Below the pieces are notes generated by a model. That model was not told the DNA's origin, ran no database searches, and saw nothing but the letters and a program-made list of their open reading frames with translations. The position numbers and the translations under genes were made by a program. From Bradyrhizobium sp. 186 (GTDB lineage: Bacteria > Pseudomonadota > Alphaproteobacteria > Rhizobiales > Xanthobacteraceae): a stretch of 64,000 bases of DNA. Each line of letters begins with the position of its first letter. Positions within the stretch are counted from its first letter, which is position 1. Below are positions 13,128 to 29,292 of this stretch, one piece after another. Location of the stretch: positions 1,984,001 through 2,048,000 of the forward strand of contig NZ_CP082164.1 in assembly GCF_023101685.1 (NCBI RefSeq), read 5' to 3'.

Positions 13128-15911
13128 TCAGACACGCTCGCGTCGCCCGACCGGCCTCAGGGCGCTCGCCGCGCGTGCTTCGATGACGGCGGCAGGAAAG
13201 TCGCGGAAGGCCTGCGAGAGCGGCAATTCGTTAGCCATGAGGTCAGGTGTGGCATAGCCCGTGATATCGACGGTTGCGTCAAATTCCTCAAGCACTGGCC
13301 ATTCCCGCCCCGCTTGCGTGAATGGCGCAAACTGGCGCCCCACCATGACGATGGCCGCCGTCCGGCCGCGGCGGCGAGCGAAGGCGATGACGTGGTCGGC
13401 GTGGGCACCGCTCACTCGGAGCGGCTGGTAGTCGCCCTGCGTGAAGACGTCGGCGAGTTCGTTGCGCAGCTTGAGGAGATGCCGCGTCCAGGCCAGCTTG
13501 AGCTGGCCATCCGGCCAGGTCTTGATCAGGCCGCGCCAGTCCGGAGTGTCCAGTGATGCCAGCGCTGCGTGGCGGGCGGCAAAGTCCACCGGCCGGCGGT
13601 TGTCGGGGTCAACCAGCGACAGATCCCAGGATTCGGTGCCCTGGTAGACGTCCGGGACGCCCGGCAGCGTCGCCTTGAGCGTGAGCTGGCTCAGCGAATT
13701 CAAGGCGCCGAGCAGCGCGACACGGCGGGCCAGGGTTTGCAGCGACTCCAGGAATTCGCCCGCCTGCGCAGGATCGAGGATCTTTTCGACGAAGCCCTGT
13801 ATGCCGGTCTCGTAGGCCTCGTGCGGATTGAGCCAACTGGTCTCTTCCTTGCCTTCGCGCGCGGCCTTGAGCGCGTAAGCCTGGATGCGCCCGACGAAAT
13901 CGGCATCCGGCCCCTCAAGCGGCCATGCGCCGAGCAGGGTCTGGTAGAGCATGTATTCGAACGTCGCCGATGGCGCGCGCAAATTGCCGCGCAGCGCCAG
14001 GTGCGGTGCGTTCAACACCTTCCAGCGCGCCACCGCGCTGGTCCACTCGCCCGTGATCTCGCTGAGCGCGGCGATCCGCGCGCGGGCGTCCTCGCCGCGC
14101 TTGGTATCGTGCGTCGCGGTCGCGGTCATGCCGTGCGGCCACTCCCTGGCGCGGGCCTGCATGGCCTGGTGGAAGGCAGGAAGCGTAAGGCCGCTGCTGG
14201 CGGGATCGCCGCCGACCTCGTTCAGGGCGAGCAACCGGTGGAATTGATAGAAGGCGGTGTCCTCCAGCGACTTCGCCATCATCGGCCCGGTGAACTGCTG
14301 CACCTTCAGCGCGAAGCGGCGCACGCGCGGGGCGCTGTGCGGCGGACGGCCGGGCCTGAGCAGGTCCATGGTCAGCGCATCGCGCAGGAAGTCGAAGATA
14401 CCTTCGTCCGCGGCGAACCATTCTGAACGGGCGCGTTCGATTGTCTCGTCGATCAGCTTGCGGTCGTGCGCCGTTGGTGCGCTGGTTGTGAGATAGGTGC
14501 GATAGACCGGGAAATGCAGCACGTAGAGCTCGAGCGCCTGCCGCAGGCTGTCGGCCGAGAAGTCGCGGGTCGAGTAGTGGCCGGTGGCGATGCGCGCGAG
14601 CAGGCGCGTCAGCACCGTGAATTCGCTGGTGAGCAGCGTCTCCAGCACGCGCCGCTTGGCGTCCTTGACGTAAGGCGCAAGCCGTGGCGGCCGGTTGCTG
14701 ATCTGCCGCCAGGTTTCGTCCAGCGCTTCCAGTCCCTTGGGATCGACCAGCACATGGGTAATGACGTTCATCCACTCATATCCTGTGGTCCCCTGAACGC
14801 CGGCAAAGTGCGGCAGGCGCTCGTGCTCGCCCAGGATCTTCTCGATGGCCGTATAGAACGGCTTTGTCGTGCCTTGCGCGTCGCGCACCAGCCGGCGCAG
14901 CCGCTGGCAATATTGCGCGGGGTCGCGCAGGCCATCGATGTGATCGAGGCGGATGCCTTGCAGCTTGCCATCGACGACCAGTTGCTTGACCAGCCGATGT
15001 GTGGCGGCGAACGTGCCGGGATCCTCGACCCGCAAGCCTGCGAGCCCGTTGACGTCAAAGAAGCGGCGATAATTGATGTCGCTGGATGCAAGCCGCCAAT
15101 GGCCGAGCTTGTAGTGCTGTCGCTCCAGCAGATGATGCAGTGCGAGGGTCTGCGCCGGGCGGTCCTTTGCCGCGCGATAGGCACTGATGCCGCGCGCGAT
15201 GATGTCGGCACCGCCCTCGATCTCCTTGAGCTCCGTCTTGAAGGCGGGGGCTTCCTTGCGATTGGGGCGCCGCAGTCCTGTATAACGCGCAGCGAGCCCG
15301 AGCAGGCGCTTGCCGGCCTCCGTCTCGGTCGCGTCCGCCTCCTTCACGATCACCCGCAGCACCTCGCCATAGCGCTCCGGCGCGATCGGCAGTCGATGCT
15401 CGAAATACCACGCCGATAAGCTGCCTTCGCCGGGATCGTAGCGCAGCTCGATCTCGCCGCGCTCGAGCGCCTCGCCGTAGGACGAGCCGAGGATCGGCAG
15501 CAGCACGCCGCCGCGGGCGCGGTAGGGCAGCAGATCCCAGTCGATATCGAAGGAGACCGCGTGCGGGGAGGCCTGTCCCCATTCCAGTACGTCCAGCCAC
15601 CACGGATTGTCGGCAAAGTGCACGCCAACATGGTTCGGTACGAAATCGATGATGAGGCCGAGGCCGTGCTTGATCAGTGCCTCGCTCAGCCGCGCGAAGC
15701 CGGCCTCGCCGCCGAGCTCGGGATTGAACTGGCTGTGATCGACGGTGTCGTAGCCGTGCGTCGAGCCCTTGCGGGCCTTCATCACCGGCGAGGTGTAGAG
15801 ATGCGTGATCCCCAGCGCCTTCAGGTAGGGCACCACCGCGACAGCGTTGTCGAAGCCGAAATCCGCGGTGAGCTGAAGCCGATAGGTCGCGAGAGGGATG
15901 GCAGGAGGCAT
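13128..15911 (-). CDS. treY: TreY, malto-oligosyltrehalose synthase
   Basis: The protein has 927 residues, in the family range. It converts the reducing-end maltose unit of maltodextrins into a terminal trehalose unit by intramolecular transglucosylation. GH13 features are IIDFVPNHVG, the nucleophile block IRLDHIDGL, the acid/base Glu in YTAIEKILGEHE, and THDTKRGEDARAR. The opening PLATYRLQL is typical of TreY. It starts one base after the treZ stop and is the last gene of a six-gene minus-strand operon. Its product feeds TreZ. Confidence 0.96.
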   Translation of the reverse strand: MPPAIPLATYRLQLTADFGFDNAVAVVPYLKALGITHLYTSPVMKARKGSTHGYDTVDHSQFNPELGGEAGFARLSEALIKHGLGLIIDFVPNHVGVHFADNPWWLDVLEWGQASPHAVSFDIDWDLLPYRARGGVLLPILGSSYGEALERGEIELRYDPGEGSLSAWYFEHRLPIAPERYGEVLRVIVKEADATETEAGKRLLGLAARYTGLRRPNRKEAPAFKTELKEIEGGADIIARGISAYRAAKDRPAQTLALHHLLERQHYKLGHWRLASSDINYRRFFDVNGLAGLRVEDPGTFAATHRLVKQLVVDGKLQGIRLDHIDGLRDPAQYCQRLRRLVRDAQGTTKPFYTAIEKILGEHERLPHFAGVQGTTGYEWMNVITHVLVDPKGLEALDETWRQISNRPPRLAPYVKDAKRRVLETLLTSEFTVLTRLLARIATGHYSTRDFSADSLRQALELYVLHFPVYRTYLTTSAPTAHDRKLIDETIERARSEWFAADEGIFDFLRDALTMDLLRPGRPPHSAPRVRRFALKVQQFTGPMMAKSLEDTAFYQFHRLLALNEVGGDPASSGLTLPAFHQAMQARAREWPHGMTATATHDTKRGEDARARIAALSEITGEWTSAVARWKVLNAPHLALRGNLRAPSATFEYMLYQTLLGAWPLEGPDADFVGRIQAYALKAAREGKEETSWLNPHEAYETGIQGFVEKILDPAQAGEFLESLQTLARRVALLGALNSLSQLTLKATLPGVPDVYQGTESWDLSLVDPDNRRPVDFAARHAALASLDTPDWRGLIKTWPDGQLKLAWTRHLLKLRNELADVFTQGDYQPLRVSGAHADHVIAFARRRGRTAAIVMVGRQFAPFTQAGREWPVLEEFDATVDITGYATPDLMANELPLSQAFRDFPAAVIEARAASALRPVGRRERV

Positions 15912-15912
15912 G

Positions 15913-17667
15913 CTAACCTCCGAGACGCCAGACCACCGACCACGGCGGAAGCCGGTCGCCGGCCGCGCCGCCCCAGATCGGCGGGCCTGCGTTGTTGCTG
16001 GAATGCGTGACCTCCTGGTCCGACAGATTGGCGATCAGGCGCAGCGTCGCGCCATCCCCCATGCGCCAATGCGCGGTGAGCAAGCCGCTGTCGGCTGCCT
16101 CGGCGTTGCCGAAAGTCGCGCCCTTCAGCCGCGGCATGATCTGCTTGCGACGGAGCGACAGCAGGTCCCGCACCAGAGCGAGCCGCGTACCATGCTCCGG
16201 CGTGTGGTTCGCCCAATCCAGCACGGCCGATTGCAGCGTCTCGGGATCGAGCGGGTCGGGTACCTCGTCGCCATATTTCTCGTAGGCCCAGGCATATTCC
16301 TGCCGGCGGCCCCTGCGCACGGCATCCGCGAGGCCGCCCTGGAAATCGCAGAAGAACGGGAAGGGCGCCGTCGAGCCCCATTCCTCGCCCTGAAACAGCA
16401 TGGGCACCATCGGCGCGAGCAACGTCACGGCGAGCGCCGCCTCGATCTGCTTGGACGATGCAAGGCTCTCGAGCCGGTCGCCCAACGGCCGGTTGCCGAT
16501 CTGGTCGTGGTTTTGCAGGAAATTGACGAAGGTCGCCGGCGGCAACCCACCACTCGGCTCGCCGCGCGGCTTCTTGCCCCAGAATTCCGAGATCTCGCCC
16601 TGATAGACGAAGCCCGAGGCGAGTGCGCGCGCAAGATCCATGCGCGGCGTCTGGTAGTCGGCGTAGTAGCCGCCGAGTTCGCCGGTCAGCATCACGTGCC
16701 AGACGTGGTGATAGTCGTCGTTCCACTGCCCGCGATATTTGCCGTTCGGAGGATCCTGTGCGGCATCGAGCAGGCTTGCGCGGTTGTCGCCGTTCTCCAG
16801 CACGAGATGGATGTGCCGGCCCGTCGCCTTTGCAAGTTCGCCGGCGGCGACGCTGAGCTCTTGCAGCATCGACTGCTCGCCGGGGAAGGCCAAGATGTGG
16901 TTGGCGGCGTCCAGCCGCAGGCCGTCGAAGCGGTAGTCGGTGAGCCAGGACAGCGCGTTCTCGACTGCAAACGCGCGCACCTGCGGCAGTCGATAATCGA
17001 TCGCGCTGCCCCAGGGTGTGTGTGCGTCGGTGAAGAAGGCCGGCGCGTAGCGGCCGAGGTAATTTCCTTCGGGGCCGAAATGATTGTAGACCACGTCGAG
17101 AAAGACCATCAGCCCGCGCAGATGCGCCTCGTCGATCAACGTCTTGAGATCTTCCGGCCGGCCATAGACGCTGTCGGGCGCATACCACAGCACGCCGTCA
17201 TAGCCCCAGCCGCGCCGGCCCGCGAAATCGGCAAGCGGCATCAATTCCAGCGCGGTGATGCCGGTCGCAACGAGATGATCGAGCTTGTCGATCATGGCGC
17301 GGTACGTGCCCTCCGCAGTGAACGTGCCGACATGGGTCTCGATCAGCACCGTCTCTTCCCAGGGACGACCACGCCAATCGGTCGCGCGCCATGCGAAGCT
17401 TGCGTGATCGATCACCTCGCTCGAGCCGGAGACATCCTCGGGCTGGAAGGTGGAGGCCGGATCTGGCACGTCGATCTCGTCGTCGATCCTGAACTTGTAC
17501 CGGCTGCCGGCGGTCAGGCCGACAATCTCGGCCACATACCAGCCGTCGTCGCGGCGCCGCATGGTATGACGTCGCTCGAGCAGGAGATCGACGCGTTTCG
17601 CGGCCGGCGCCCACAGTCGGAAAGACACCCCATCCTTCGTCGGCCTGGCGCCGAAGGATGGCCTCAT
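15913..17667 (-). CDS. treZ: TreZ, malto-oligosyltrehalose trehalohydrolase
   Basis: The protein has 584 residues. It releases free trehalose from the malto-oligosyltrehalose made by TreY. An N-terminal carbohydrate-binding module (about 1-95, VSFRLWAPAAKRVDLLL) precedes the GH13 barrel with VFLDVVYNHFGPEG, the nucleophile in GLRLDAANHI, the acid/base Glu in LVLENGDN and NHDQIGNRPLGDR. The ATG overlaps the glgX stop by four bases, so the genes are translationally coupled. Confidence 0.96.
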   Translation of the reverse strand: MRPSFGARPTKDGVSFRLWAPAAKRVDLLLERRHTMRRRDDGWYVAEIVGLTAGSRYKFRIDDEIDVPDPASTFQPEDVSGSSEVIDHASFAWRATDWRGRPWEETVLIETHVGTFTAEGTYRAMIDKLDHLVATGITALELMPLADFAGRRGWGYDGVLWYAPDSVYGRPEDLKTLIDEAHLRGLMVFLDVVYNHFGPEGNYLGRYAPAFFTDAHTPWGSAIDYRLPQVRAFAVENALSWLTDYRFDGLRLDAANHILAFPGEQSMLQELSVAAGELAKATGRHIHLVLENGDNRASLLDAAQDPPNGKYRGQWNDDYHHVWHVMLTGELGGYYADYQTPRMDLARALASGFVYQGEISEFWGKKPRGEPSGGLPPATFVNFLQNHDQIGNRPLGDRLESLASSKQIEAALAVTLLAPMVPMLFQGEEWGSTAPFPFFCDFQGGLADAVRRGRRQEYAWAYEKYGDEVPDPLDPETLQSAVLDWANHTPEHGTRLALVRDLLSLRRKQIMPRLKGATFGNAEAADSGLLTAHWRMGDGATLRLIANLSDQEVTHSSNNAGPPIWGGAAGDRLPPWSVVWRLGG

Positions 17668-19742
17668 AGCGCGCCCGCAAAAGCGAGCACGGAGCGCGGC
17701 GGCGCCTTGCTGTCGGTCCCGGGCTGGAAGTCAATCGTGTTCAGCTTGGCTTCGGTCGTGTTCAGGATCTGCTGCCAGCTCTTGTATCCGGTCATCTTGG
17801 GCAATTTGAATGCGATCTCTTCGGGGGCGGCGTTCAGAATTATAAAGATCGCGGCCCCACCCGGTTCCATCGGCCCCATCACATAGGAGAGGAACCTTCC
17901 CTCCGGGAATTTCCAGTCGTTCTCCGTCATCTCGTCACCGGCCGGTGTCAGCCATAGCACGCCGTAGGCGACGCCATCCGCAGGACGGCCGTCGAGCCAG
18001 CGATGGCTGCGGAGCTGCGAGAAGCGCCGGCGGATGTCGGCGAGATGAGCGACGTAATCGATCATGTCGTCGCCGTCCTTGCCGAGACGGTCCCAGCCGA
18101 CCCAGCCGACCTCGTTGTCCTGGCAATAGGCGTTGTTGTTGCCGGACTGCGAGTTGCCGACCTCGTCGCCGGCGAGGATCAGGGGAACGCCCTGCGCCAG
18201 CATCAGGCAGGCCAGCACGTTCTTGCGAAGCTGCCGGCGCAGGCCGAGAATTTTCGGATCGTCGGTCGGGCCCTCGACACCGCAATTGTTGCTGTGGTTG
18301 TCGCTGGAGCCGTCGCGATTGTCCTCGCCGTTGGCCTCATTGTGCTTCTCGTTGTAGCTGAAGAGGTCGGCCAGCGTAAAACCGTCGTGCACGGTGATGT
18401 GGTTGATGCTGGCGCGCGGCCGCCGTCCGTCATGGTTGAACAGGTCGGAGGACGCGGTCATGCGGCTCGAGATGTCGCCGATCAGGCTGCCTTCGCCGCT
18501 CCAGTAGCGCCGCATGGCGCTGCGATAGCGGTCGTTCCACTCCGACCATTGCGAGGGGAATGCGCCGACCTGATATCCGCCAAGTCCGAGGTCCCAGGGC
18601 TCGGCGACGAGCTTGACGGTCGCCAGCACCGGATCCTGCCGGATCGCAGTCAGGAACGAGATGCTGCGATCATAGCCGTTCGGTCCGCGCGCAAGGGTGG
18701 TGGCAAGGTCGAAGCGGAAACCGTCGACGTGGCAGACCTCGACCCAATAGCGCAGCGAATCCATCACCATCTGAAGCACGCGCGGATGGGCGAGATTCAC
18801 CGACGAGCCGCAGCCGGTGAAGTCGTCGTAATAGCGCGGGTTCTCGCGGTTCAGCCAGTAATAAGAGGCGTTGTCGATGCCGCGGTAGCACAATGTCGGG
18901 CCGAGGTGATTACCTTCCGCGGTGTGATTGTAGACGACGTCGAGCATCACCTCGATGCCGGCATCATGCAGGCGCGCGACCGTGGTGCGGAAGGAGTCGA
19001 GCGCGTTGTCCTGGGCATAGCGCGCCTCGGGCGCGAAAAAGGAGAGCGTGTTGTAGCCCCAGTAATTGGCGAGCTTCTTCTCCACCAGGATGCGATCGTC
19101 AACGAAGCTGTGGATCGGCAGCAGCTCGACCGTCGTAACGCCGAGCTTCTTCAAATGCTCGATCATCGCGGGCGACGACAGGCCGCCATAGGTGCCGCGC
19201 AGGTTCGGCGGCACGTCGTCGCGCTTCTGCGTCAGGCCCTTGACGTGGGCCTCGTAGATGATGGTGTCCTCCCAGGCGATGTGGGGGCGGATCTCGCGGC
19301 GTCCCCAGTTGAAGGTCTCGTCGACGACGACCGCCTTGGGCATGCCGCGCGCATTGTCCCGCCGGTCGAACGACAGGTCCTCGCGCGGGCTGCCTGTGCG
19401 ATAGGCGAAATGCGCGTCGCTCCAGACCAGCCGACCGGAGAGCCGCTTGGCGTAGGGGTCGAGCAGCAGCTTGTTGGCGTTGAAGCGGTGGCCGTGCTCG
19501 GGCTCGTAGGGGCCGTGCACGCGGTAGCCGTAGAGCTGGCCCGGGGAGACGTCGTTGAGATAAGCGTGCCAGACGTCCTCGGTACGTTCGGGCAATTCGA
19601 TGCGCTCAAGCTCGCGGCGGCCCTGACTGTCGAACAGGCACAGCTCGACCCTCTCGGCATTGGCGGAGAACAATGCGAAATTGGTGCCGCGTCCGTCCCA
19701 GCTTGCGCCGAGGCGTGCGGGCGATCCAGCAGTCAGGCGCAT
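17664..19742 (-). CDS. glgX: GlgX, glycogen debranching enzyme (isoamylase type)
   Basis: The protein has 692 residues. It cleaves alpha-1,6 branches left after phosphorylase action and supplies linear maltodextrins to TreY. An N-terminal CBM48 module (GTNFALFSANAERVELCLFD) precedes a GH13 barrel with MLDVVYNHTAEGNHLGPT, the nucleophile in GFRFDLATTLARG, the acid/base Glu in LVAEPWDLGLGGYQ, and TVHDGFTLADLFSYNEKHN. It starts three bases after the glgB stop. Debranching, branching and trehalose formation are therefore made from one message. Confidence 0.96.
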   Translation of the reverse strand: MRLTAGSPARLGASWDGRGTNFALFSANAERVELCLFDSQGRRELERIELPERTEDVWHAYLNDVSPGQLYGYRVHGPYEPEHGHRFNANKLLLDPYAKRLSGRLVWSDAHFAYRTGSPREDLSFDRRDNARGMPKAVVVDETFNWGRREIRPHIAWEDTIIYEAHVKGLTQKRDDVPPNLRGTYGGLSSPAMIEHLKKLGVTTVELLPIHSFVDDRILVEKKLANYWGYNTLSFFAPEARYAQDNALDSFRTTVARLHDAGIEVMLDVVYNHTAEGNHLGPTLCYRGIDNASYYWLNRENPRYYDDFTGCGSSVNLAHPRVLQMVMDSLRYWVEVCHVDGFRFDLATTLARGPNGYDRSISFLTAIRQDPVLATVKLVAEPWDLGLGGYQVGAFPSQWSEWNDRYRSAMRRYWSGEGSLIGDISSRMTASSDLFNHDGRRPRASINHITVHDGFTLADLFSYNEKHNEANGEDNRDGSSDNHSNNCGVEGPTDDPKILGLRRQLRKNVLACLMLAQGVPLILAGDEVGNSQSGNNNAYCQDNEVGWVGWDRLGKDGDDMIDYVAHLADIRRRFSQLRSHRWLDGRPADGVAYGVLWLTPAGDEMTENDWKFPEGRFLSYVMGPMEPGGAAIFIILNAAPEEIAFKLPKMTGYKSWQQILNTTEAKLNTIDFQPGTDSKAPPRSVLAFAGAL

Positions 19743-19745
19743 GGG

Positions 19746-21884
19746 TCAGCTTTCCGGAACGAGGAAAATCGCGGCCAACGGCGGAATGGTGAGGCGGAGT
19801 TCGCCGCCGACGGCCTGAACCTCGCCGATGTTACCGACATTGCTGCCGCCATAATGTGCGGAGTCGGAGTTGAGCACTTCCTTCCACTTGCCGGCAAAGG
19901 GCACGCGAACGCGATAGTTGCGATAGACGTTGGGTGAGAAGTTGACGATCACGAAACACCGCGCGTGCTCGTCAATTCCCTTGCGCAGCCAGGCGAATAC
20001 GTTGCGGTTGGCGTCGTCCGTGATCAACCATTCGAAGCCGGCCTGGTCGCAATCCATCTGGTGCAGCGCTGGCACCGCGCGATAGAGGCGGTTGAGGTCG
20101 CGGATCAGCGCCTGGATGCCGGAATGGCTCTTGTATTCGAGCAGGTGCCAGTCGAGCGACTGGTCGTGATTCCATTCGCGGCTTTGCGCGAGTTCCGCGC
20201 CCATGAACAGCAGCTTCTTGCCGGGATGGCCGAACATGAAGCTGTAATAGGCGCGGAGATTCGCAAACCGCTGCCACTCGTCGCCGGGCATCCGGCCCAG
20301 GATCGAGCGTTTGCCATGCACGACCTCGTCATGCGATAGCGGCAGGATGAAGTTCTCCGAGAACGCATAGTGCAGGCCGAACAGGATATCGCCGTGGTGG
20401 TGCTTGCGGTGGATCGGATCCTTGCTGATGTAGTTCAGCGTGTCATGCATCCAGCCCATGTTCCACTTGTAGCCGAAGCCGAGCCCGCCATATTCGACCG
20501 GCCGCGAAACCTGCGGCCAGGCGGTGGACTCTTCTGCCGCTGTAGTCGCCTGCGGGAAGCGCGCGAATAGCTCGGTGTTGAAGCGGCGGAGGAACGCGAT
20601 CGCCTCGATGTTTTCCCGCCCGCCATACTGGTTCGGAATCCATGCGCCCGGCGGACGGCTGTAGTCGAGGTAGAGCATCGAGGCGACCGCATCGACGCGC
20701 AGACCGTCGATTGCGTAGCGCTCGAGCCAGAACAGCGCGTTCGACACCAAGAAGTTCGTCACTTCGGTGCGGCCGTAATTGTAGATCAGCGTGCCCCAGT
20801 CGAGGTGGCGGCCCTGGAGCGGGTTGGCGTGCTCATAGACCGAGGTGCCGTCGAACTGGCCGAGCCCGTGCGGATCGTCGGGGAAGTGACCGGGCACCCA
20901 ATCGAGCAGCACGCCGACGCCTTCGCGATGGCAGGCATCGACCAGCGCCGCGAAATCCTCCGGCGTGCCGAAGCGGCTGGTCGGCGCATAGAGGCCGGTC
21001 GGCTGATAACCCCACGAGCCGTCGAAGGGGTGCTCGCTCACGGGCAGGAATTCGAGATGGGTGAAGCCCATGTCGCGGGCATAGGCCGGCAACTGCTCGG
21101 CCAACTCGCGATAGGTGAGCCATTCATTGTCGCCCTTGCGCCGCCACGAACCGAGATGGATCTCGTAGATCGACATCGGCGCCGACAATGCGTTGATGCC
21201 GTCGAGCGCCGGGCGCGGCCGCGGCAGATGCGCCTCGTCGAAGACGATGGAGGCCGTCTTTGGCCGCACCTCGCTTGCAAACGCCATCGGATCGGATTTC
21301 AGCGGCAGTTGGTGGCCGTGCGGTCCAACGATGTCGAACTTGTAGTGATCGCCGGCCTTGGCGTGCGGGATGAACAACTCCCAATAGCCGGCGCCACGCA
21401 CCCGCATGGGATGGCGCCGCGCATTCCAGAAATTGAAATCGCCGACCACGGCGACGCGCCGTGCGTTCGGCGCCAGCACCACGAAGCCGATGCCGTCGAT
21501 ACCCTCGAGCGTCATCGGGTGGGCGCCGAGCTTGTCATAGAGGCGCTGATGGGTGCCTTCGCCGAGCAGATAAAGGTCGAAGTCGGTCAGGATCGGCGGA
21601 AAGCGGTAGGCGTCTTCGAACTCGACGACATCGTTGCCGAACTTCGCACGCAGCTGATAATGCTTGGAGCCGTTGGGCAGGGCGCCGATGAACAGGCCCG
21701 AATCGTGGACACGATCGAGCTTTGCCACCTCGCCATGCTCGCCGATCGCCTCGACATTGGAAGCCTCGGGAAGGAAAGCGCGCACCACGCTCTTCCCACC
21801 TTCGGGATGCAGGCCGAGATAGTGGAAGGGGTCGGAGTGGCGGCCCTCGATGATCGCGTAGGCCTCGGCAGGCAGTTTAGGCAT
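19746..21884 (-). CDS. glgB: GlgB, 1,4-alpha-glucan branching enzyme
   Basis: The protein has 712 residues, the usual length. It moves chain ends to form alpha-1,6 branches in glycogen-like polymer. Two N-terminal beta modules (about 1-210) precede the GH13 barrel: [10 protein letters not shown], the nucleophile in [17 protein letters not shown], the acid/base Glu in [15 protein letters not shown] and [12 protein letters not shown]. All catalytic residues are present. The ATG lies within the end of treS (8-base overlap). In GlgE-type systems this enzyme branches the linear glucan grown from maltose-1-phosphate. Confidence 0.97.
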
Positions 21885-24800
21885 GTGCTTCGCTCTCGTT
21901 GGACAGAATGCGAAGCAGCCCGGTCAGCGGCGCGTTGAGCCCCTCCGGCCGGTGGGACAGCTCGTATTCTACTTCGTCGAACGCCTGATCAAGCAGGAAA
22001 AACCTTAACAGGCCTTCCGCAGAATGCGGGTCTTCCGGCCACAGCCGCCGATCGGTCATGGCCTCACGGTACGCAGACAGGAACGTCGAGGCGGCGCGCT
22101 CGCGCCATTCGCCGAGCGCAGCCGCGAGCCGCTCCTGCTCGTCGGAAGCCCCCGAAAACGCACGGTTGAGAGCCGCAGCTACCGACAGATCGATCGAGCG
22201 GATCAGACCGGCGACATCGCGGGCGGCCGGCGACTTGCGCCGCTTGTCCGCCAGCGCCAGATGCGGATCGCCGTCAAAGTCGATGATGAAGATATCGTCC
22301 TTCACGATAAGAGTTTGTCCGAGGCGGAAATCGCCATGATGACGGATGTTCAACCCGCCGATGTCGGATGACAATAGCGCATTCAGCCGGTCGGACAGGC
22401 GCGCGCGCGCCGCTTCGAGCTGATCGACCAGCGGCCGGTCGGCTTCCCGCAGGCCATCGCGGCTCTCGATCAGCCGCTCGAAAACCCGCTCGGCGCGCGT
22501 CTTGAGGTCCGAAGTCCAGCGCTTGACGTGTGCCGCGCTGATTGGCTCGGGGGCGAGATCGTCGGGCTTTGCGGCGGCGAGCGCGACGTGCAACTCGGCG
22601 AGCCGCCGGCCGGTTTGCGCCAGATGGTGCAGATAGGGTGCCTGGTCCTGGTTCTCGCGGGGCGCCTCGCTCGACGCCAGGAGCCGCTGCTCGTCGATAT
22701 GACGGTCGAGATAGGCTGCGGTCACTGCCCAGCCGTCGCCCTGGTTCTCGACATAAGCGTGCAGGACGCCGACCGTACTGCGCTCGTCACCTTCGACCAA
22801 TTCGGCGCTGCCGAGCAGGGCCGGCGTGTTGGCAAAGCGGGCGACCTCGGTGAGATAGCGGCCGATCTCGATCTCGGGATTGATGCCGCTCTCGAGCTGG
22901 CGATAGATCTTGGCGACGTATTGGTTGTCGACCAGGGCCGTGCTGTTCGACTGCTCGATCGCGCGGATGCGCTCGGGCTCCTTGACGGTGTATTCCGAGA
23001 ACAGGCCGGTCGGCTTGAACTCGAGCCGCAGATTGTTCTCCTCCACGACCAGGTTCTGCGACAGGTTGCGCAGGAACAGGCCGATGAAGATCTGGTTTGT
23101 CGCGACATCGAGCAGCGTGCCTTCGCGCGCGCCCTGGCGCACGGCGGCGAGCGCTTTCGGATTGAAGCGTTCGCGATCGAAGCGCACCCACTCGATCTGC
23201 ATGGGCAGCACGTAGCGCGTCGCGACGTCCTGTTGCGTCGCCTCGAAGAACGCGATCCAGGGCCGGTTGTCGCCGATGTCGCAGAACGGGATTGCCGAGG
23301 TCAGGGTGGGCCGGATCTGCCGGGGATTATGTTCGGGATACCACCGCGTCCGCGACAAAAATCCCGGCAGCACGTCGCGTTCGAACACGCCGCGCTCGCG
23401 CGCCAGCGACACCCAGGTCGAATTGACCGGCACCACCAGCGTCTCGAATTCCGGCACCGCGCTTGGCGTCACCGGCTCGGATTTGTCGCGCTCCAGGAGC
23501 TGGAACCAGTAGAAGCCGTAAGGCCCGAGCGTGATCATGTATGGCAATTCGCCGATCGCCGGGAAGCGGGCGCGGCCGAGCATTTCCTGCGGGATGCGGT
23601 CCTTCCATGGCGACAGGTCCAGCTCGGTCGCCTGTGCTGCGCGCGAGAGATTGGTGACGCAGAGGATCACCTCGTCGCGATATTGCCGGACATAGGCGAG
23701 GACGGCGCGGTTGGTCGGGCGGATGAAAGTCATGGTGCCGCGGCCGAAGGCGAGCGTCGACTTGCGCACCGAGATCAGCCGCTTGGTGGCGCTGAGCTGC
23801 GAGGACAGGCTGCGCGACTGCGCCTCGACGTTGACCGATTCGTAGCCGTAGACCGGATCCATGATCGGCGGCGCGTAGAGGCGGGCCGGATCGGCACGGG
23901 AGAAACCGCCGTTGCGATCCGGGCTCCACTGCATCGGCGTGCGCACGCCGTTGCGGTCGCCGAGATAGATGTTGTCGCCCATGCCGATCTCGTCGCCGTA
24001 ATAGACGATCGGCGTGCCCGGGAACGACAGCAGCAGTGAGTTCATCAGCTCGATCTTGCGACGGTCATTGTCCATCAGCGGCGCGAGACGCCGGCGGATG
24101 CCGACATTGATGCGCGCGCGAGGATCGTTGGCGTAGGTGGTCCAGAGATAGTCGCGCTCGACGTCGGTGACCATCTCCAGCGTCAACTCGTCATGATTGC
24201 GCAGGAACAGCGCCCATTGGCAGTTCGCGGGAATGTCCGGCGTCTGGCGCAGGATGTCGGTGATTGGGAAGCGGTCCTCCTGCGCGATCGCCATGTAAAT
24301 GCGCGGCATCAGCGGAAAGTGATAGGCCATGTGGCACTCGTCGCCACGGCCGAAATACTCCTGCACGTCCTCCGGCCATTGATTGGCCTCGGCCAGCAGC
24401 AGCTTGCCCTTCGAATAGGCGTCCAGTTCCTGGCGCAGGCGCTTGATGATCGCGTGCGTCTCGGGGAGGTTCTCGTTCGAGGTGCCCTCGCGCTCGCAGA
24501 GATAGGGAATTGCATCGAGCCGGAAGCCGTCGACCCCGGCATCGAGCCAGCGCTTCATCACCTGGATGAGCGCGCTGACGACGCGCGGATTATCGAAATT
24601 GAGGTCGGGCTGGTGCGAGAAGAAGCGGTGCCAGTAGAAAGCGCCGGCCTCGGGGTCCCAGGTCCAGTTGGATTTCTCGGTGTCCGTAAAGATGATCCGC
24701 GTGCCCTGGTATTTCTGGTCGGTGTCGCTCCAGACGTACCAGTCGCGAGCGCTCGAGCCTGCCGGGCTGCGTCGCGCGCGCTTGAACCAATTGTGCTGGT

Positions 24801-25167
24801 CGGAGGTGTGGTTGACGACGAGCTCGGTGATCACGCGCAGCCCGCGGCGCTGCGCTTCCTGGATGAAGCGCTTGAAATCCTTCATCGTCCCGAAATCGGA
24901 ATTGATCGAGCCGTAGTCGGCGATGTCGTAACCATCGTCGCGGCCGGGCGAGGGATAGAACGGCAGCAGCCACAGCGCGGTGACGCCGAGGTCCTGGAGA
25001 TACGAAAGCTTCTCGGTCAGGCCGGCGAAATCGCCGATGCCGTCATTGTTGCTGTCGGCAAAGGCCTTGACGTGAAGCTGGTAGATGATGGCGTCCTTGT
25101 ACCAGAGCTCGTCCACGATATCGGCAGCCTCGGCCTTCTTGGTGTCGACGGAAGACAAAACATTCAT
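21877..25167 (-). CDS. treS: TreS-maltokinase fusion: trehalose synthase joined to Pep2-type maltokinase
   Basis: The protein has 1096 residues in two parts. The GH13 trehalose synthase (about 20-590) interconverts trehalose and maltose, with the nucleophile in [15 protein letters not shown], the acid/base Glu in [12 protein letters not shown] and [12 protein letters not shown]. The C-terminal part (about 630-1090) is a maltokinase with the kinase-like catalytic HHGDFRLGQ and [20 protein letters not shown]. Together they turn trehalose into maltose-1-phosphate. The start at ATG 25167 (MNVLSS) has GAGG overlapping the glgE stop. An upstream in-frame ATG (25248) lies inside glgE. The fusion channels product straight to a GlgE-type enzyme, which is encoded immediately upstream. 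Confidence 0.96.
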
Positions 25168-25178
25168 GGCGTGCGTCC

Positions 25179-27125
25179 TCACGCCAGGCAGCGGAACAAG
25201 AGCGCCGGATCGCGGTCGGGATCGATACGCAACCTGATTCCGCCCCATTCGATGCGGGACTGTTCGCCGGTGAGGAGATTTTCGAGTGCGGTGACGTGGC
25301 GGCGCTCGTTGCCGACATCGAGGGTGACGTCACCGAGTGGCAGCCAGACTTCGCGTGCATGGCCGGAAAGCGCGATGGCCGCGACGACGGTATTGGCAGG
25401 ATCGGCCGCCTCCTTGGCGAACGCGATCGTCTCACCGTCCTCGATGCCGAGGAAGCGCAGATTTGCGGTCTGCTGGAGCGCCGCGTTCTCGCTGCGGATG
25501 CGATTTAGCTGGGCGATGTAGGTTTTGATATTGCCCGGTTTGTCCCAGTCGCGCTGCCCGATCTGATATTTCTCGGATTCGCGATACTCTTCGCGGCCGG
25601 GGATGGCCTCGTGCTCGAGCAGCTCGAAGCCGCTGTAGATGCCGTAATTGCCCGACAACGCGGCTGCCAGCGCTGCGCGCGACTTGAATGCCCAGGCTTC
25701 GCCGCTCTGGAGATGATAGGGCAGCAGGTCGGGCGTGTTGGCAAACAGGTTCGGGCGATAGAAGTCTCGCTCGGGATAGCGGGTGAGCTCGCCGAGATAT
25801 TGCTCCAGCTCCCATTTCTCCGTGCGCCACGGGAAATAGCTGAAGGATTGCGCAAAACCGAGCTTGGCGAGTCCCTTCATCAATTTCGGCCGGGCGTACG
25901 TCTTGGAGAACAGGATCACCTCGGGATGCCGGCGGCGGATGTCGCGGATCAGCCATTCCCAGAACTGGAACGGCGCGGTGTCGTGGTTGTCGATGGCGAA
26001 GATGGTCACGCCATGATCGATCCAGAACAGCATGGCGTCGCGGAAGGCGTTCCACAGCCCGATCCTGTCGACGGACGCGAAATCGGGGATGACGATATCC
26101 GAATAGGGCCCGTCCGCCGACCGCACCGAGCGGTCCGGCCGCCACTTGAACCATTCCGGATGCTGCATCAGCCAGGGATGATCCGGAGAGCATTGCACGG
26201 CGAAGTCGAGCGCCAGCTCGAGGCCGTATTCGAGGCAGGTCGCAACCAGCGCGCGGAAATCCTCGATCGTGCCGAGCTCGGGATGCAGTGCATCGTGGCC
26301 ACCCTCGGCGGCGCCGATCGCATAGGGAGAGCCGGGGTCGCCTTCGGTCGCTACCGGCGAGTTGTCGCGGCCTTTGCGGTGAGTATGGCCGATGGGATGG
26401 ATCGGCGTGAGGTAGAGCACGTCAAAGCCCATCGCGGCGATGTCGGGCAGGCGCGCGATGCAATCCCTCAGCGTGCCGTGCTGGCCCGGCACCTGGCTTT
26501 GGCTGCGCGGCATCATCTGATACCAGGCGCCGAAGCGCGCCTTGGCGCGGTCGACGAACAGCGGGAAAAGGGGCGAGCGAGTCAGGTCGGGCCGCGACTG
26601 GCTCTCGGCCATGGCTTCGCCGAGCTCGGCCGCGAGCAGGGGCATCACTTCGCCGGTTTGAAGATAGTCCTCGCATTGTTTGACGATGACCGCTGCGGCG
26701 TCCTGCCGCGCGCCATGCGCCTTGGTCAGGAGGCCGGCGCCTTCGATCGCATCGAGTGTAATATCCACGCCGGAGAGCTGCTTTTGTGCGAGGCTGTGAC
26801 GCCAGGTGGCGAATTCATCGGTCCAGGCTTCGATCGCATAGACATACTGCCCGGGTTCGAGCGGGATGAACGAGCCGGACCATCGGTCGTTGCCGTGATG
26901 GATCATCGGCTCGCTCCGCCACTCCCGATCCTGCTCGCCGCGCCAGACCAGCGCGGCGCTGATCACGGCGTCGCCGTCGCGATAGATATCGGCCCAGACC
27001 TCGACGCGCTCGCCCGCGATCCGCTTCACGCCGAAGCGGCCGCCATCGATCGAGGGATAGACGTCTTCGATCAGGAAAGCGCTGCCGGCGGCGGCACTCT
27101 CGACAGTTTGAATTGTCTTGTTCAC
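25179..27125 (-). CDS. glgE: GlgE-family maltosyltransferase with altered catalytic residues
   Basis: The protein has 648 residues. It carries the GlgE N-terminal DUF3416 domain (about 15-120) and a GH13_3 barrel. GlgE normally adds maltose from maltose-1-phosphate to alpha-1,4-glucan. Conserved here are [13 protein letters not shown], the nucleophile Asp379 in FAIDN, Asp466 in FANTPD, Lys251 in THRKGRDN and SEKYQ of the phosphate pocket. The acid/base Glu, expected 29 residues after the nucleophile, is Lys408 ([11 protein letters not shown]), and the Arg two residues before the nucleophile is Ala377. GTG start. It is the first gene of the operon. It could be a pseudoenzyme, a maltose-1-phosphate binding protein or an enzyme with changed chemistry. 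An active paralogue may lie elsewhere in the genome. Confidence 0.85.
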
Positions 27126-27330: not shown

Positions 27331-29292
27331 ATGGATCTTTTAGCTCAAGCCCGGATCAAGGGCGTTCAGTCCGAATTCGTTGATGCCCTCGGAAAGCTGC
27401 GGGTCACCGATCCCGCAGCCCTCAAATCCATCCTCGACGCCCTGCCGGAGAAGCGGGTCTACCGCTATGTCAGCGGGCCGGTCGTGGTTCGCGCCTTGGG
27501 GAATGCGCGCACGGAATTGGCTGCCGCCGGCGCGTCGCCGCTCAAATGGAAAATCACCGGCAACGGCGATGTGATCGCGCAAGGCGAGACGCGCGAGCCG
27601 GTGATCGCCTGGCCCGCCGGCCTGCCGCTCGGTTACCACCGGTTGACACTGACCGATGCCGGAGGGGTGTCGGAAGACGTGCCGATGATCGTGGCGCCCG
27701 AGCGGGCCTTCGGCGGCGATTTCGACCGCGGCTGGCTGCTCGCCGTCCAGCTCTACAGCATCCGCTCTGATCGCAATTGGGGCATCGGTGATTTCACCGA
27801 CCTTGCCGATCTCGTCCGGCTCGCAAGACAGCTCGGCGCCGACGGCGTCGGGCTCAACCCGCTGCATGTCCTGTTCGACAATCACCCCAGCGATTGCAGC
27901 CCCTATTCGCCGAACAGCCGGCTGTTTCTCAACCCGCTCTATATCGACGTCGAGGCGATCCCGGAATTCTCCGCTGATCTCGTCCCCGACGCCGCAGCGA
28001 CTGCCGCGCGATTGCGCGAAGGCGATCGTGTGCCCTATGCCGACATGGCGGCGTTGAAATGGCTCGGCCTGCGTGCCGCCTTTGACAGCTTCGTGACAAC
28101 GGCAAGCGACGCACGCCGTCAGGCGTTTGACGCATTCCGCGCCGCCCGCGCGCCGCTGTTGTCCCGCTTTGCCTGCTTCGAAGTGCTGCGGCATCGCTTC
28201 ACCGGGCCGTGGTGGGAATGGCCGCCCGAATGGCAACAACCGGACGAGACAAAACTCGCCGAGCTGCGCAATGGTCGTGACAAGCGCGAGGTCGAGTTCG
28301 TCGAATTCGTGCAGTGGACCGCCGATACGCAATTGCATGCCGCCAAGGAGCTTGCCGGCCAGCTCGGCATGCGGGTCGGGCTTTATCTCGACGTTGCCGT
28401 TGGCGTGCAATCGAACGGCTTCGATGCCTGGAACGAGCAGGTGGCGATTTCCCGCCACCTCGCCGTCGGTGCGCCGCCCGACGTGCTCAACACCGTCGGT
28501 CAGGACTGGGGTCTTGCCGGCTTCAATTCCGGCGGCCTGGAAGCCCAGTCCTTCGTGCCGTTTGCAGACATGCTCGCCGCCGCGATGCGCCACGCCGGCG
28601 CCATCCGGCTCGATCACGTGCTGGGGCTGAAGCGGCTCTATCTGGTGCCGCGCGGCTTCAAGCCCGATAACGGCGCGTATGTGCAGATGCCGTTCGAGGC
28701 GCTGCTTGGAGCGGTGGCGCGCGAGAGCGCGGCCCATAAATGCATCGTGATCGGCGAGGACCTCGGCACCGTGCCGGAAGGTTTTCGCGAGACCATGCAG
28801 GATTTTGGCATCTGGTCCTACCTCGTCATGATGTTCGAGCGGGACGATGCCGGCCATTTTCGCAGCAGTGATCATTACCGCCCCAACGCGCTGGTCACGC
28901 TGAACACGCACGATCTGTCGACCTACGCCGGCTGGCGCTCCTTCAGCGACCTGAGGATGAAGCTTTCGCTCGGGCTCGATCCCGGCGAGAACGATCAGGC
29001 GCGCTGGGATGCGCTCGGCATGCTCGACGAGATCCTGCGCGCCAACGGCATTAAAGCCAACGATCTCTACTCGGTGCTTGCTTTTCTGTCGCGTACGCCA
29101 TCGCGGCTCTTGGCGGTCTCGCTGGAGGATCTGCTCGGCGTGATCGACCAGCCCAACATCCCAGGGACGATCGACGAGCATCCGAATTGGCGCCAGCGCC
29201 TGCCGGTCGCGCTCGACAAGATCGCCGCCAAGATCGATCTCGCGGCTTTGAAAGCCGCGACACGGGAACGTTCCTTGACCGGCGGGAGTTAA
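27331..29292 (+). CDS. malQ: MalQ, 4-alpha-glucanotransferase (amylomaltase)
   Basis: The protein has 653 residues and belongs to GH77. It transfers glucan segments between maltodextrins, releasing glucose. Typical blocks are the aromatic NWGIGDFTDLADLVR, SPYSPNSRLFLNPLYID, the nucleophile in AIRLDHVLGLKRLYLVP, the acid/base Glu in IVIGEDLGTVPEGF and LNTHDLSTYAGW. The N-terminal 140 residues form an extension with a beta-rich module seen in longer MalQ proteins. It is divergent from the glgE operon, and the GH15 gene follows 30 bases downstream, so the two plus-strand genes probably share a transcript. Confidence 0.96.
   Translation: MDLLAQARIKGVQSEFVDALGKLRVTDPAALKSILDALPEKRVYRYVSGPVVVRALGNARTELAAAGASPLKWKITGNGDVIAQGETREPVIAWPAGLPLGYHRLTLTDAGGVSEDVPMIVAPERAFGGDFDRGWLLAVQLYSIRSDRNWGIGDFTDLADLVRLARQLGADGVGLNPLHVLFDNHPSDCSPYSPNSRLFLNPLYIDVEAIPEFSADLVPDAAATAARLREGDRVPYADMAALKWLGLRAAFDSFVTTASDARRQAFDAFRAARAPLLSRFACFEVLRHRFTGPWWEWPPEWQQPDETKLAELRNGRDKREVEFVEFVQWTADTQLHAAKELAGQLGMRVGLYLDVAVGVQSNGFDAWNEQVAISRHLAVGAPPDVLNTVGQDWGLAGFNSGGLEAQSFVPFADMLAAAMRHAGAIRLDHVLGLKRLYLVPRGFKPDNGAYVQMPFEALLGAVARESAAHKCIVIGEDLGTVPEGFRETMQDFGIWSYLVMMFERDDAGHFRSSDHYRPNALVTLNTHDLSTYAGWRSFSDLRMKLSLGLDPGENDQARWDALGMLDEILRANGIKANDLYSVLAFLSRTPSRLLAVSLEDLLGVIDQPNIPGTIDEHPNWRQRLPVALDKIAAKIDLAALKAATRERSLTGGS

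What the first reader, a model, noticed from the sequence alone, without database searches (positions are those of the whole stretch)
25179..27125. GlgE-family protein with the acid/base Glu replaced by Lys and the invariant Arg by Ala
Seen: the nucleophile block reads FAIDN (Asp379) and, exactly 29 residues later, [11 protein letters not shown] puts Lys408 where Streptomyces GlgE has Glu423 in a LAEAFTRP block (nucleophile Asp394, same spacing). I confirmed the Lys codon on the reverse complement (CTT at 25902-25904). Ala377 replaces the Arg two residues before the nucleophile. Asp466, Lys251 and SEKY of the phosphate pocket remain. Known: GH13 retaining enzymes need the Glu to protonate and then activate an acceptor. 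Inference: this could be a maltose-1-phosphate-binding regulator, or an enzyme with different chemistry, although it is first in an otherwise intact treS-maltokinase/glgB operon.
Basis: partly seen in the sequence, partly recalled or inferred. Interest (0 to 1): 0.75.

Follow-up and report, generated by a model that had tools for sequence, protein, structure and literature searches.

The report
Disabled GlgE kept after pathway loss
About half of Bradyrhizobium species carry a sugar-polymer enzyme, GlgE, that has lost residues needed for its chemistry, and the partner kinase that should make its fuel looks damaged too, yet the gene is kept, which suggests that a disabled enzyme was given another job.

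Summary
In detail: the window's only GlgE homologue (25179-27125, minus) has Lys408 for acid/base Glu423 and Ala377 for Arg392. It is a clade trait: 118 of 121 nearest proteins have Lys, one Bradyrhizobium clade, in the orthologous locus, under purifying selection. Two things were missed. The M1P-phosphate clamp (N352, K355) is also lost, while sugar-subsite residues, nucleophile and acceptor Trp are kept. And the operon is not "otherwise intact": the maltokinase half of TreS-Mak has lost residues equivalent to His307, Glu324, Lys413 and Tyr416, with TreS almost unchanged. A second clade altered clamp and Mak independently. Twelve key Mak residues are intact in 60 of 60 canonical loci and in 0 of 67 loci with K-type, second-clade or no GlgE. 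GlgC is strong in 38 of 38 K genomes, 16 of 16 second-clade, 1 of 15 canonical. Best reading: the maltose-1-phosphate route was dismantled and GlgE retained as a catalytically disabled, probably glucan-binding, pseudoenzyme. That role is inferred; nothing was assayed.

The parts
25179..27125 (-). K-type GlgE homologue, 648 aa (GTG start; stop codon included)
25902..25904 (-). Lys408 codon in place of acid/base Glu423 (Sco numbering)
25995..25997 (-). Ala377 codon in place of Arg392
25989..25991 (-). Asp379, retained nucleophile position (Asp394)
25980..25985 (-). His381-Asp382, new residues invariant in the 50 K-type genes (canonical Pro-His)
26103..26117 (-). Residues 337-341 (ADGPY): remnant of the phosphate-clamp loop, canonical AENPPKKY; N352 and K355 equivalents lost, Tyr357 kept
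25728..25730 (-). Asp466, retained Asp480 position (touches O3' in Streptomyces)
25824..25829 (-). Trp433-Arg434, retained acceptor-site residues (Trp448, Arg449)
25566..25571 (-). Lys519-Tyr520, retained -2 subsite (Lys534, Tyr535)
21877..25248 (-). TreS-Mak fusion, 1123 aa from the first ATG; TreS half conserved, Mak half altered. Pfam names only the amylase and Malt_amylase_C parts; the Mak half is named from its match to solved maltokinases
21880..23478 (-). Mak half (about residue 591 to 1123), predicted to lack normal maltokinase activity
22324..22326 (-). Arg975 for His307 of the Mak catalytic loop (HGDxHLGQ to HGDxRLGQ)
22267..22275 (-). Asp992-Gly-Asp994: DFEGE to DFDGD (Glu324, Glu326)
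21976..21987 (-). Residues 1088-1091, with Gln1088 and Asp1091 at the Lys413 and Tyr416 positions of the maltose pocket
19746..21884 (-). glgB, branching enzyme; control with almost no canonical-invariant change
17664..19742 (-). glgX-like gene of the same operon (named by me from sequence and position; no family search run)
15913..17667 (-). treZ-like gene (same basis)
13128..15911 (-). treY-like gene (same basis)
27331..29292 (+). malQ-like gene, divergent neighbour and flank of the locus (same basis)

Best explanation
The protein is a GlgE orthologue that has stopped being a maltose-1-phosphate (M1P) maltosyltransferase and is retained as a catalytically disabled, sugar-binding pseudoenzyme. 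Shown by sequence: loss of the acid/base Glu, of Arg392 and of two of the four phosphate-binding residues; retention of the -2 subsite, nucleophile position, Asp480 position and acceptor Trp/Arg; replacement residues fixed in the clade; purifying selection; joint change of key residues in the fused maltokinase; recurrence of the GlgE/Mak coupling in other Bradyrhizobium lineages; a strong GlgC match in each of the 38 K genomes checked. Inferred: ancestors that made glycogen by GlgC-GlgA could drop the M1P route; Mak had to fail before or together with GlgE because M1P accumulation is harmful; the leftover GlgE still binds malto-oligosaccharide chains and now acts as a non-catalytic glucan-binding subunit or regulator of the neighbouring TreS, GlgB or GlgX activities.
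For: Lys408 and Ala377 fixed in 50 of 50 distinct K-type genes with synonymous codon variation. Of the ligands named for Streptomyces, R392, E423, N352 and K355 are lost; K264, N268, A282, Y357, D359, D394, N395, W448, D480, K534 and Y535 are kept in 50 of 50, S279 in 43, R449 in 46, Q324 in 49. 35 of 284 canonical-invariant GlgE columns changed and 17 of 162 in Mak, against 1 of 396 in TreS, 1 of 387 in GlgB, 2 of 199 in MalQ and 2 of 278 in GH15. Twelve key Mak residues all intact in 60 of 60 canonical loci and never all intact in 31 K, 16 lineage-II and 20 glgE-less loci. The residue mapping is borne out by alignment of the window's Mak half with solved maltokinases (5jy7 E 4e-27, 4u94 E 4.8e-27). 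Lys413, Tyr416 and Tyr420 mutants practically abolish maltokinase (PMC4306142 passages). dN/dS 0.154 for K glgE against 0.147 for treS-mak of the same clade. Streptomyces Glu423 mutation loses activity, and the E423A variant bound malto-octaose across -2 to +6 (PMC5076824 passages). S. venezuelae glgE null accumulates M1P; the pep2 mutant on maltose shows neither M1P accumulation nor delay (PMC5042117 abstract). GlgC at E 1e-100 or better in 38 of 38 K and 16 of 16 lineage-II genomes, 1 of 15 canonical. Two natural K-type proteins lack even the nucleophile (P0032 Ala, P0117 Gly).
Against: Nucleophile and Asp480 position are kept in all 50 K genes, which would suit a working enzyme, though in Streptomyces both also touch sugar hydroxyls. 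Lineage II keeps Arg and, in 15 of 16 loci, Glu despite the altered clamp, so clamp loss need not mean loss of catalysis. dN/dS is above canonical GlgE (0.154 against 0.119; 0.185 against 0.119 in a smaller set), and the Mak half of the K clade is looser still (0.255 against 0.169), which a slow relic would also give. No activity, binding, expression or partner data exist here. The GlgE-Mak coupling rests on 7 inferred changes on the best tree but only 2 independent pairs on strongly supported branches. GlgC presence is confounded by relatedness and by incomplete canonical assemblies, and 13 of 22 genomes without GlgE lack strong GlgC. B. [quoted passage not shown] Nothing here points to a particular partner.
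Confidence: 0.6

Rival explanations
1. Still an enzyme with rebuilt chemistry: the retained nucleophile forms a glycosyl-enzyme from a donor other than M1P (another activated sugar, or malto-oligosaccharide in a disproportionation), with the invariant Lys408, His381 and Asp382 as a new catalytic or leaving-group site.
For: Asp379, Asp466 and the -2 subsite kept; Ala377, His381, Asp382, Ala384 and Lys408 each invariant in 50 genes. Asp382 is the new acid nearest in sequence to the nucleophile among changed canonical-invariant columns. Ordinary GlgE can disproportionate malto-oligosaccharides without M1P (PMC11046441 passage).
Against: P0032 and P0117 lack the nucleophile and P0118 reads DSQQ in place of DNHD; no candidate donor; the fused kinase has lost maltose-pocket residues. 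The AlphaFold model was too poor to place side chains.
Confidence: 0.15
2. Relic: the M1P route is dead and glgE is decaying slowly, not yet lost.
For: 20 of 20 fetched glgE-less loci show that the gene can be lost outright with TreS-Mak left; dN/dS raised in GlgE and Mak but not in TreS or GlgB.
Against: dN/dS still about 0.15; no stop inside any of 51 rows read (37 of them fetched K-type loci, plus the window's own) and no K-type gene under 1700 bases; new residues fixed with synonymous variation; homologue of 77% identity or more in about 130 of 265 genomes (hand count of the rows).
Confidence: 0.13
3. Maltose-1-phosphate-binding regulator.
For: -2 subsite, Asn395 and Tyr357 kept.
Against: Two of four phosphate ligands lost; Mak predicted inactive, so little M1P expected; no second Mak found in the genome.
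Confidence: 0.07
4. Ordinary GlgE function, or a sequence artefact.
For: Overall GlgE architecture and synteny intact.
Against: Clade-wide fixation in many separate assemblies; mutating Glu423 loses activity in Streptomyces (PMC5076824 passage).
Confidence: 0.05

Closest known systems
[quoted passage not shown]
   Same: Orthologous locus, PF11896 N/S domain, nucleophile, Asp480 position, -2 and acceptor subsites
   Different: Acid/base Glu to Lys, Arg392 to Ala, phosphate ligands N352 and K355 lost
Streptomyces coelicolor GlgE E423A variant (laboratory mutant)
   Same: Lacks the acid/base carboxylate; binds malto-octaose across -2 to +6 (PMC5076824 passages)
   Different: Natural and clade-wide here, with clamp and Arg392 also gone; binding untested
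Plant isoamylase ISA2, noncatalytic paralogue in starch synthesis
   Different: ISA2 binds an active paralogue, ISA1; here no second GlgE exists in the genome
Mycobacterial maltokinase (Mak/Pep2) and the TreS:Pep2 complex (PMC4306142 passages; PMC6509496 abstract)
   Same: The fused Mak half is homologous and keeps the HGD Asp, Mg-binding Asp and Gln, and P-loop lysine
   Different: Maltose-pocket and DFE residues lost in the K clade

Membership tests
GlgE (GH13_3) | PF11896 N/S domain and full-length similarity to solved GlgE | tested here: met
   PF11896 176.7 bits; 5vsj E 4.8e-143 over residues 18-643. NCBIfam gave no GlgE-named match
GlgE (GH13_3) | Catalytic nucleophile Asp394 | tested here: met
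   Asp379; 50 of 50 K-type sequences; 119 of 121
GlgE (GH13_3) | Acid/base Glu423 | tested here: not met
   Lys408
GlgE (GH13_3) | Arg392 two residues before the nucleophile | tested here: not met
   Ala377
GlgE (GH13_3) | M1P phosphate ligands N352, K355, Y357, N395 | tested here: not met
   N352 and K355 lost, Y357 and N395 kept
GlgE (GH13_3) | -2 maltosyl subsite residues | tested here: met
   K264, N268, A282, D359, K534, Y535 in 50 of 50; S279 in 43 of 50, Cys in 7
GlgE (GH13_3) | Maltosyl transfer from M1P | not testable with these tools
   No assay
Maltokinase (Mak) half of the neighbour | Twelve ATP-, Mg- and maltose-site residues named in PMC4306142 | tested here: not met
   5 or 6 of 12 altered in 31 of 31 K loci; 0 of 12 altered in 60 of 60 canonical loci; window mapping
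Pseudoenzyme | Orthologue with lost catalytic residues, kept under purifying selection | tested here: met
Pseudoenzyme | Demonstrated non-catalytic function | not testable with these tools
   No experiment

The most novel reading that the evidence does not exclude
Evolution has rebuilt a GH13 fold into a different enzyme: the nucleophile stays, a charge-swapped Lys408 with Asp382/His381 replaces the Glu/Arg pair, and the fused kinase was retuned in step to make a new, non-M1P activated disaccharide. The pair would be a new glucan-building or glucan-capping route in Bradyrhizobium.
Probability: 0.1. Interest if true: 0.85.

Novelty: new variant of a known kind. Interest (0 to 1): 0.62.

Why it matters
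Many of these genes are named maltosyltransferases in the sources, and B. japonicum and B. diazoefficiens proteins (P0054, P0091) fall in the K-type set, so metabolic models that give such strains a GlgE route are probably wrong. The genus offers a natural series: intact pathway; clamp altered with Glu kept; clamp and Glu lost; gene deleted; the last three each with altered maltokinase. That makes testable in what order a pathway with a harmful intermediate is dismantled, and why a disabled sugar enzyme is kept in one lineage and deleted in another.

Tried and rejected
Second intact GlgE in the genome: none. Second maltokinase: none found. AlphaFold2 model from 59 close sequences: mean pLDDT 65.7, several active-site stretches (338-340, 409-429, 450-474) below 50, so no side-chain or relocated-acid inference was drawn and no fold search was run. 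Sequence artefact or pseudogene: rejected. One shared origin of the K clade and lineage II: not supported; each is monophyletic, and the K clade's sister L090 is canonical. K motif outside the genus: 56 of 391 family genomes matched, 54 in the genus and 2 outside; the 2 were not followed and may be chance (the reversed control pattern also hit 2 genomes). A lone Glu-to-Lys change also turns up in one protein with canonical clamp and Arg (P0308); singletons were not followed. NCBIfam gave no GlgE model match.

Limits. Rows identical in sequence were counted once. One search left out genes with internal stops, so its dN/dS cannot speak to stops; searches do. Pairs with dS outside 0.1-1.0 were left out. 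Loci without near-complete TreS-Mak were left out; 5 canonical rows with under 400 TreS residues were left out. P-loop labels such as S136E are shifted by alignment gaps in some glgE-less loci; the loss itself is seen. In one search neighbouring columns of one loop are counted as separate, so its P values are too small, and the GlgB control also shows one shared change (0.02 expected, P 0.02). The Mak reference residues come from mycobacterial work. GlgC counts and the figure of about 130 were read by hand from the rows. Of the 56 genomes without a PF11896 match I tested 20, plus 2 with weak matches.

Literature: the listings showed no title or abstract start that describes a non-canonical GlgE in Bradyrhizobium; most listed papers were not opened, and the library lacks most subscription journals.

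Full report
WHAT IS THERE. The minus-strand ORF 25179-27125 encodes 648 residues, with the GlgE N/S domain PF11896 and a weak match to the alpha-amylase domain. It aligns with solved Streptomyces GlgE over residues 18-643. That alignment gives Asp379 = Asp394 (nucleophile), Lys408 = Glu423 (acid/base), Ala377 = Arg392, Asp466 = Asp480. The nearest proteins that carry an organism name are Bradyrhizobium. The genome has one PF11896 protein, two GlgA and one GlgC over their cut-offs, and no second maltokinase was found.

NOT A SINGLE MUTATION. Of 121 proteins (window plus the 120 best hits) 118 have Lys at 408 and 3 have Glu. Over 316 proteins from three searches, 193 read Arg-Asp-Glu and 114 Ala-Asp-Lys at the three positions. 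The other 9 are: 3 Arg-Asp-Gly; K-type with Val or Thr for Ala (1 each); K-type with Ala or Gly at the nucleophile (1 each); one Arg-Glu-Glu; and one Arg-Asp-Lys with a canonical clamp, P0308. In the genus 226 of 265 genomes matched the protein, some only weakly, and 209 of 265 have PF11896. By my hand count of the rows, about 130 genomes hold a homologue of 77% identity or more; all 38 such genomes whose sequence I read, the window's included, are K-type. In the listing four genomes have two PF11896 matches (G053, G127, G229, G236); none is in that K range.

SAME LOCUS, STILL UNDER SELECTION. In K-type and canonical loci alike the order is malQ (divergent), glgE, treS-mak, glgB, glgX, treZ, treY, as far as the stretches reach. 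The distant canonical type of L161-L163 and L167 lacks this arrangement. So the K-type is an orthologue changed in place. Median dN/dS among K-type glgE is 0.154 (50 genes), against 0.119 for canonical Bradyrhizobium glgE (27 genes) and 0.147 for treS-mak of the K clade (28 genes). A smaller, wider-spread set gives 0.185, 0.175 and 0.119 for K, lineage-II and canonical glgE; 0.255, 0.128 and 0.169 for Mak; 0.057, 0.062 and 0.084 for TreS. GlgE and Mak of the K clade are thus looser than canonical ones, but far from neutral. In 50 distinct K genes Ala377, His381, Asp382, Ala384 and Lys408 are invariant with synonymous codon variation, for example AAG 46 and AAA 4 at Lys408. In a tree without the trait columns the K clade is one group (SH-aLRT 100), on a long stem, with canonical L090 as sister.

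WHICH RESIDUES WENT. Of 284 columns invariant (97% or more) in 59 canonical sequences, the K consensus differs in 35, and 18 of these fall in 332-346, 377-384 and 405-411. The paper on Streptomyces and M. tuberculosis GlgE assigns the phosphate to N395, K355, N352 and Y357, and the -2 sugar to K264, N268, Y535, D359, S279, K534 and A282 (PMC4526890, section 7 read). The K clade loses N352 and K355 (the loop is shortened in 94% of sequences at the three columns concerned, and rebuilt without N and K in the rest), R392 and E423. It keeps the -2 subsite, Q324, D394, N395, Y357, D480 and the acceptor Trp448/Arg449. Departures: S279 is Cys in 7 of 50, R449 is Cys in 4, Q324 is His in 1. The machinery for phosphate and proton transfer is gone; the sugar grip is not.

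THE PARTNER KINASE IS ALTERED TOO. The same comparison on the neighbours gives 1 of 396 columns changed in TreS and 17 of 162 in Mak, 1 of 387 in GlgB, 2 of 199 in MalQ and 2 of 278 in GH15. Pfam does not name the Mak half, but it matches solved maltokinases (5jy7 E 4e-27; 4u94 E 4.8e-27), and that alignment puts the window's HGDFRLGQ on HGDLHLGQ, DFDGDP on DFEGEP and [11 protein letters not shown] on LDKAVYEAAYE. So His307, Glu324, Glu326, Lys413 and Tyr416 are replaced. In mycobacterial Mak, mutation of Lys413, Tyr416 or Tyr420 practically abolishes activity, and Ser136 to Ala costs 97% (PMC4306142 passages).

IT HAPPENED MORE THAN ONCE. A second clade (lineage II; 16 loci, B. macuxiense L121 among them; B. 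pachyrhizi and B. jicamae proteins P0248 and P0249 share its loop type) has the clamp changed from NPPKKY to HPPQRW or the like. Arg and Glu are kept in 15 of 16 loci; Glu is Gly in L121 and in the proteins P0239, P0240 and P0253. Its Mak is altered by another route (S136P, N137H, DFDGGP in 16 of 16). Trees of GlgE and of TreS-Mak without the trait columns show K and II as separate monophyletic groups. Columns changed in both lineages exceed chance: 9 in GlgE (2.8 expected, P 5e-4) and 5 in Mak (1.1 expected, P 0.0016); GlgB has 1 (0.02 expected, P 0.02); neighbouring columns are not independent, so these P values are too small. Of genomes without GlgE I tested 22 (20 with no PF11896 match; G086 and G231 with weak ones only): all 22 keep TreS-Mak, in G101 cut by a contig end. 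In the 20 loci that I fetched no glgE match lies between malQ and treS-mak, and Mak has lost 3 to 7 of 12 key residues.

THE COUPLING. Twelve Mak residues named in the structural paper are all intact in 60 of 60 loci with canonical GlgE, and never all intact in 31 K, 16 lineage-II and 20 glgE-less loci. On a TreS tree of 122 rows the best topology needs 7 changes of GlgE state and 7 of Mak state; the two traits coincide in every row, but only 2 independent pairs rest on strongly supported branches (7 on all branches), so this is strong as a pattern and weak as a formal test. GlgC at E 1e-100 or better (rows): 38 of 38 K genomes and 16 of 16 lineage-II genomes whose GlgE I had read; 1 of 15 canonical genomes (G140; G136, an incomplete assembly, has 1.8e-72); 9 of 22 genomes without GlgE. 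Relatedness and incomplete assemblies confound this, and the 13 genomes with neither GlgE nor strong GlgC do not fit a simple replacement story.

HOW IT MOST LIKELY WORKS. In S. venezuelae a glgE null accumulates M1P and is delayed, while a pep2 null on maltose is not (PMC5042117 abstract), and M. tuberculosis dies without GlgE through M1P build-up (PMC4526890 abstract). So GlgE can be given up safely only when Mak is also off. Where GlgC-GlgA makes glycogen the M1P route is spare. What remains in the K clade is a GlgE that should still hold malto-oligosaccharides: the Streptomyces E423A variant binds malto-octaose from -2 to +6 (PMC5076824 passages). I infer a non-catalytic glucan-binding or regulatory role beside TreS, GlgB and GlgX. 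Precedent: plant ISA2, a noncatalytic isoamylase paralogue conserved despite lacking a functional catalytic site (PMC12510319 abstract). In B. diazoefficiens treS is controlled by the EcfG stress sigma factor, and an earlier study is cited for more trehalose and less maltose in a treS mutant (PMC8092242 passages), which fits a working TreS; the same paper reports a wild-type-like symbiosis for mutants lacking treS and treZY. The role, the partner and glucan binding are not shown.

WHAT SPEAKS AGAINST. The nucleophile is nearly always kept; lineage II keeps Arg and Glu; new residues are fixed. Ordinary GlgE can also disproportionate malto-oligosaccharides without M1P (PMC11046441 passage), so lineage II in particular may still be an enzyme. 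A switch to another donor with the kinase retuned is not excluded. The relic rival is weakened by selection but not removed.

NOVELTY. A new variant of a known kind: a natural, clade-wide disabled GlgE with a co-altered maltokinase. The listings showed no title or abstract start describing it; most of those papers were not opened.

Noticed in passing
L148, L150-L160, L164-L166, L121: Second Bradyrhizobium lineage with an altered GlgE phosphate clamp but intact Arg and, in 15 of 16 loci, Glu, and with Mak S136P, N137H, DFDGGP: a natural intermediate state.
   Followed up: partly
L171-L190 (unnamed Bradyrhizobium genomes): No glgE between malQ and treS-mak, with an altered Mak half still fused to TreS; 13 of the 22 tested genomes without GlgE also lack a strong GlgC match, so how they make glycogen is open.
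   Followed up: partly
window 26517-26519 (residue 203): Gln203 replaces a Glu that is invariant in canonical GlgE, and the same Glu-to-Gln change arose in lineage II; unexplained.
   Followed up: no
L161, L162 (genome G053), L163, L167: A more distant canonical GlgE type (61-62% identity) near a Mak-like match that lacks the TreS half; G053 carries two such loci.
   Followed up: no
own genome C1:7443853-7445253: Second GlgA over cut-off, apart from the glgA-glgC pair at 2301138-2303791.
   Followed up: no
proteins P0032 and P0117: K-type GlgE with the nucleophile Asp also lost (Ala, Gly).
   Followed up: no
protein P0308: A protein with canonical clamp and Arg but a lone Glu-to-Lys at the acid/base position; a single sequence, possibly an error or a fresh mutation.
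   Followed up: no
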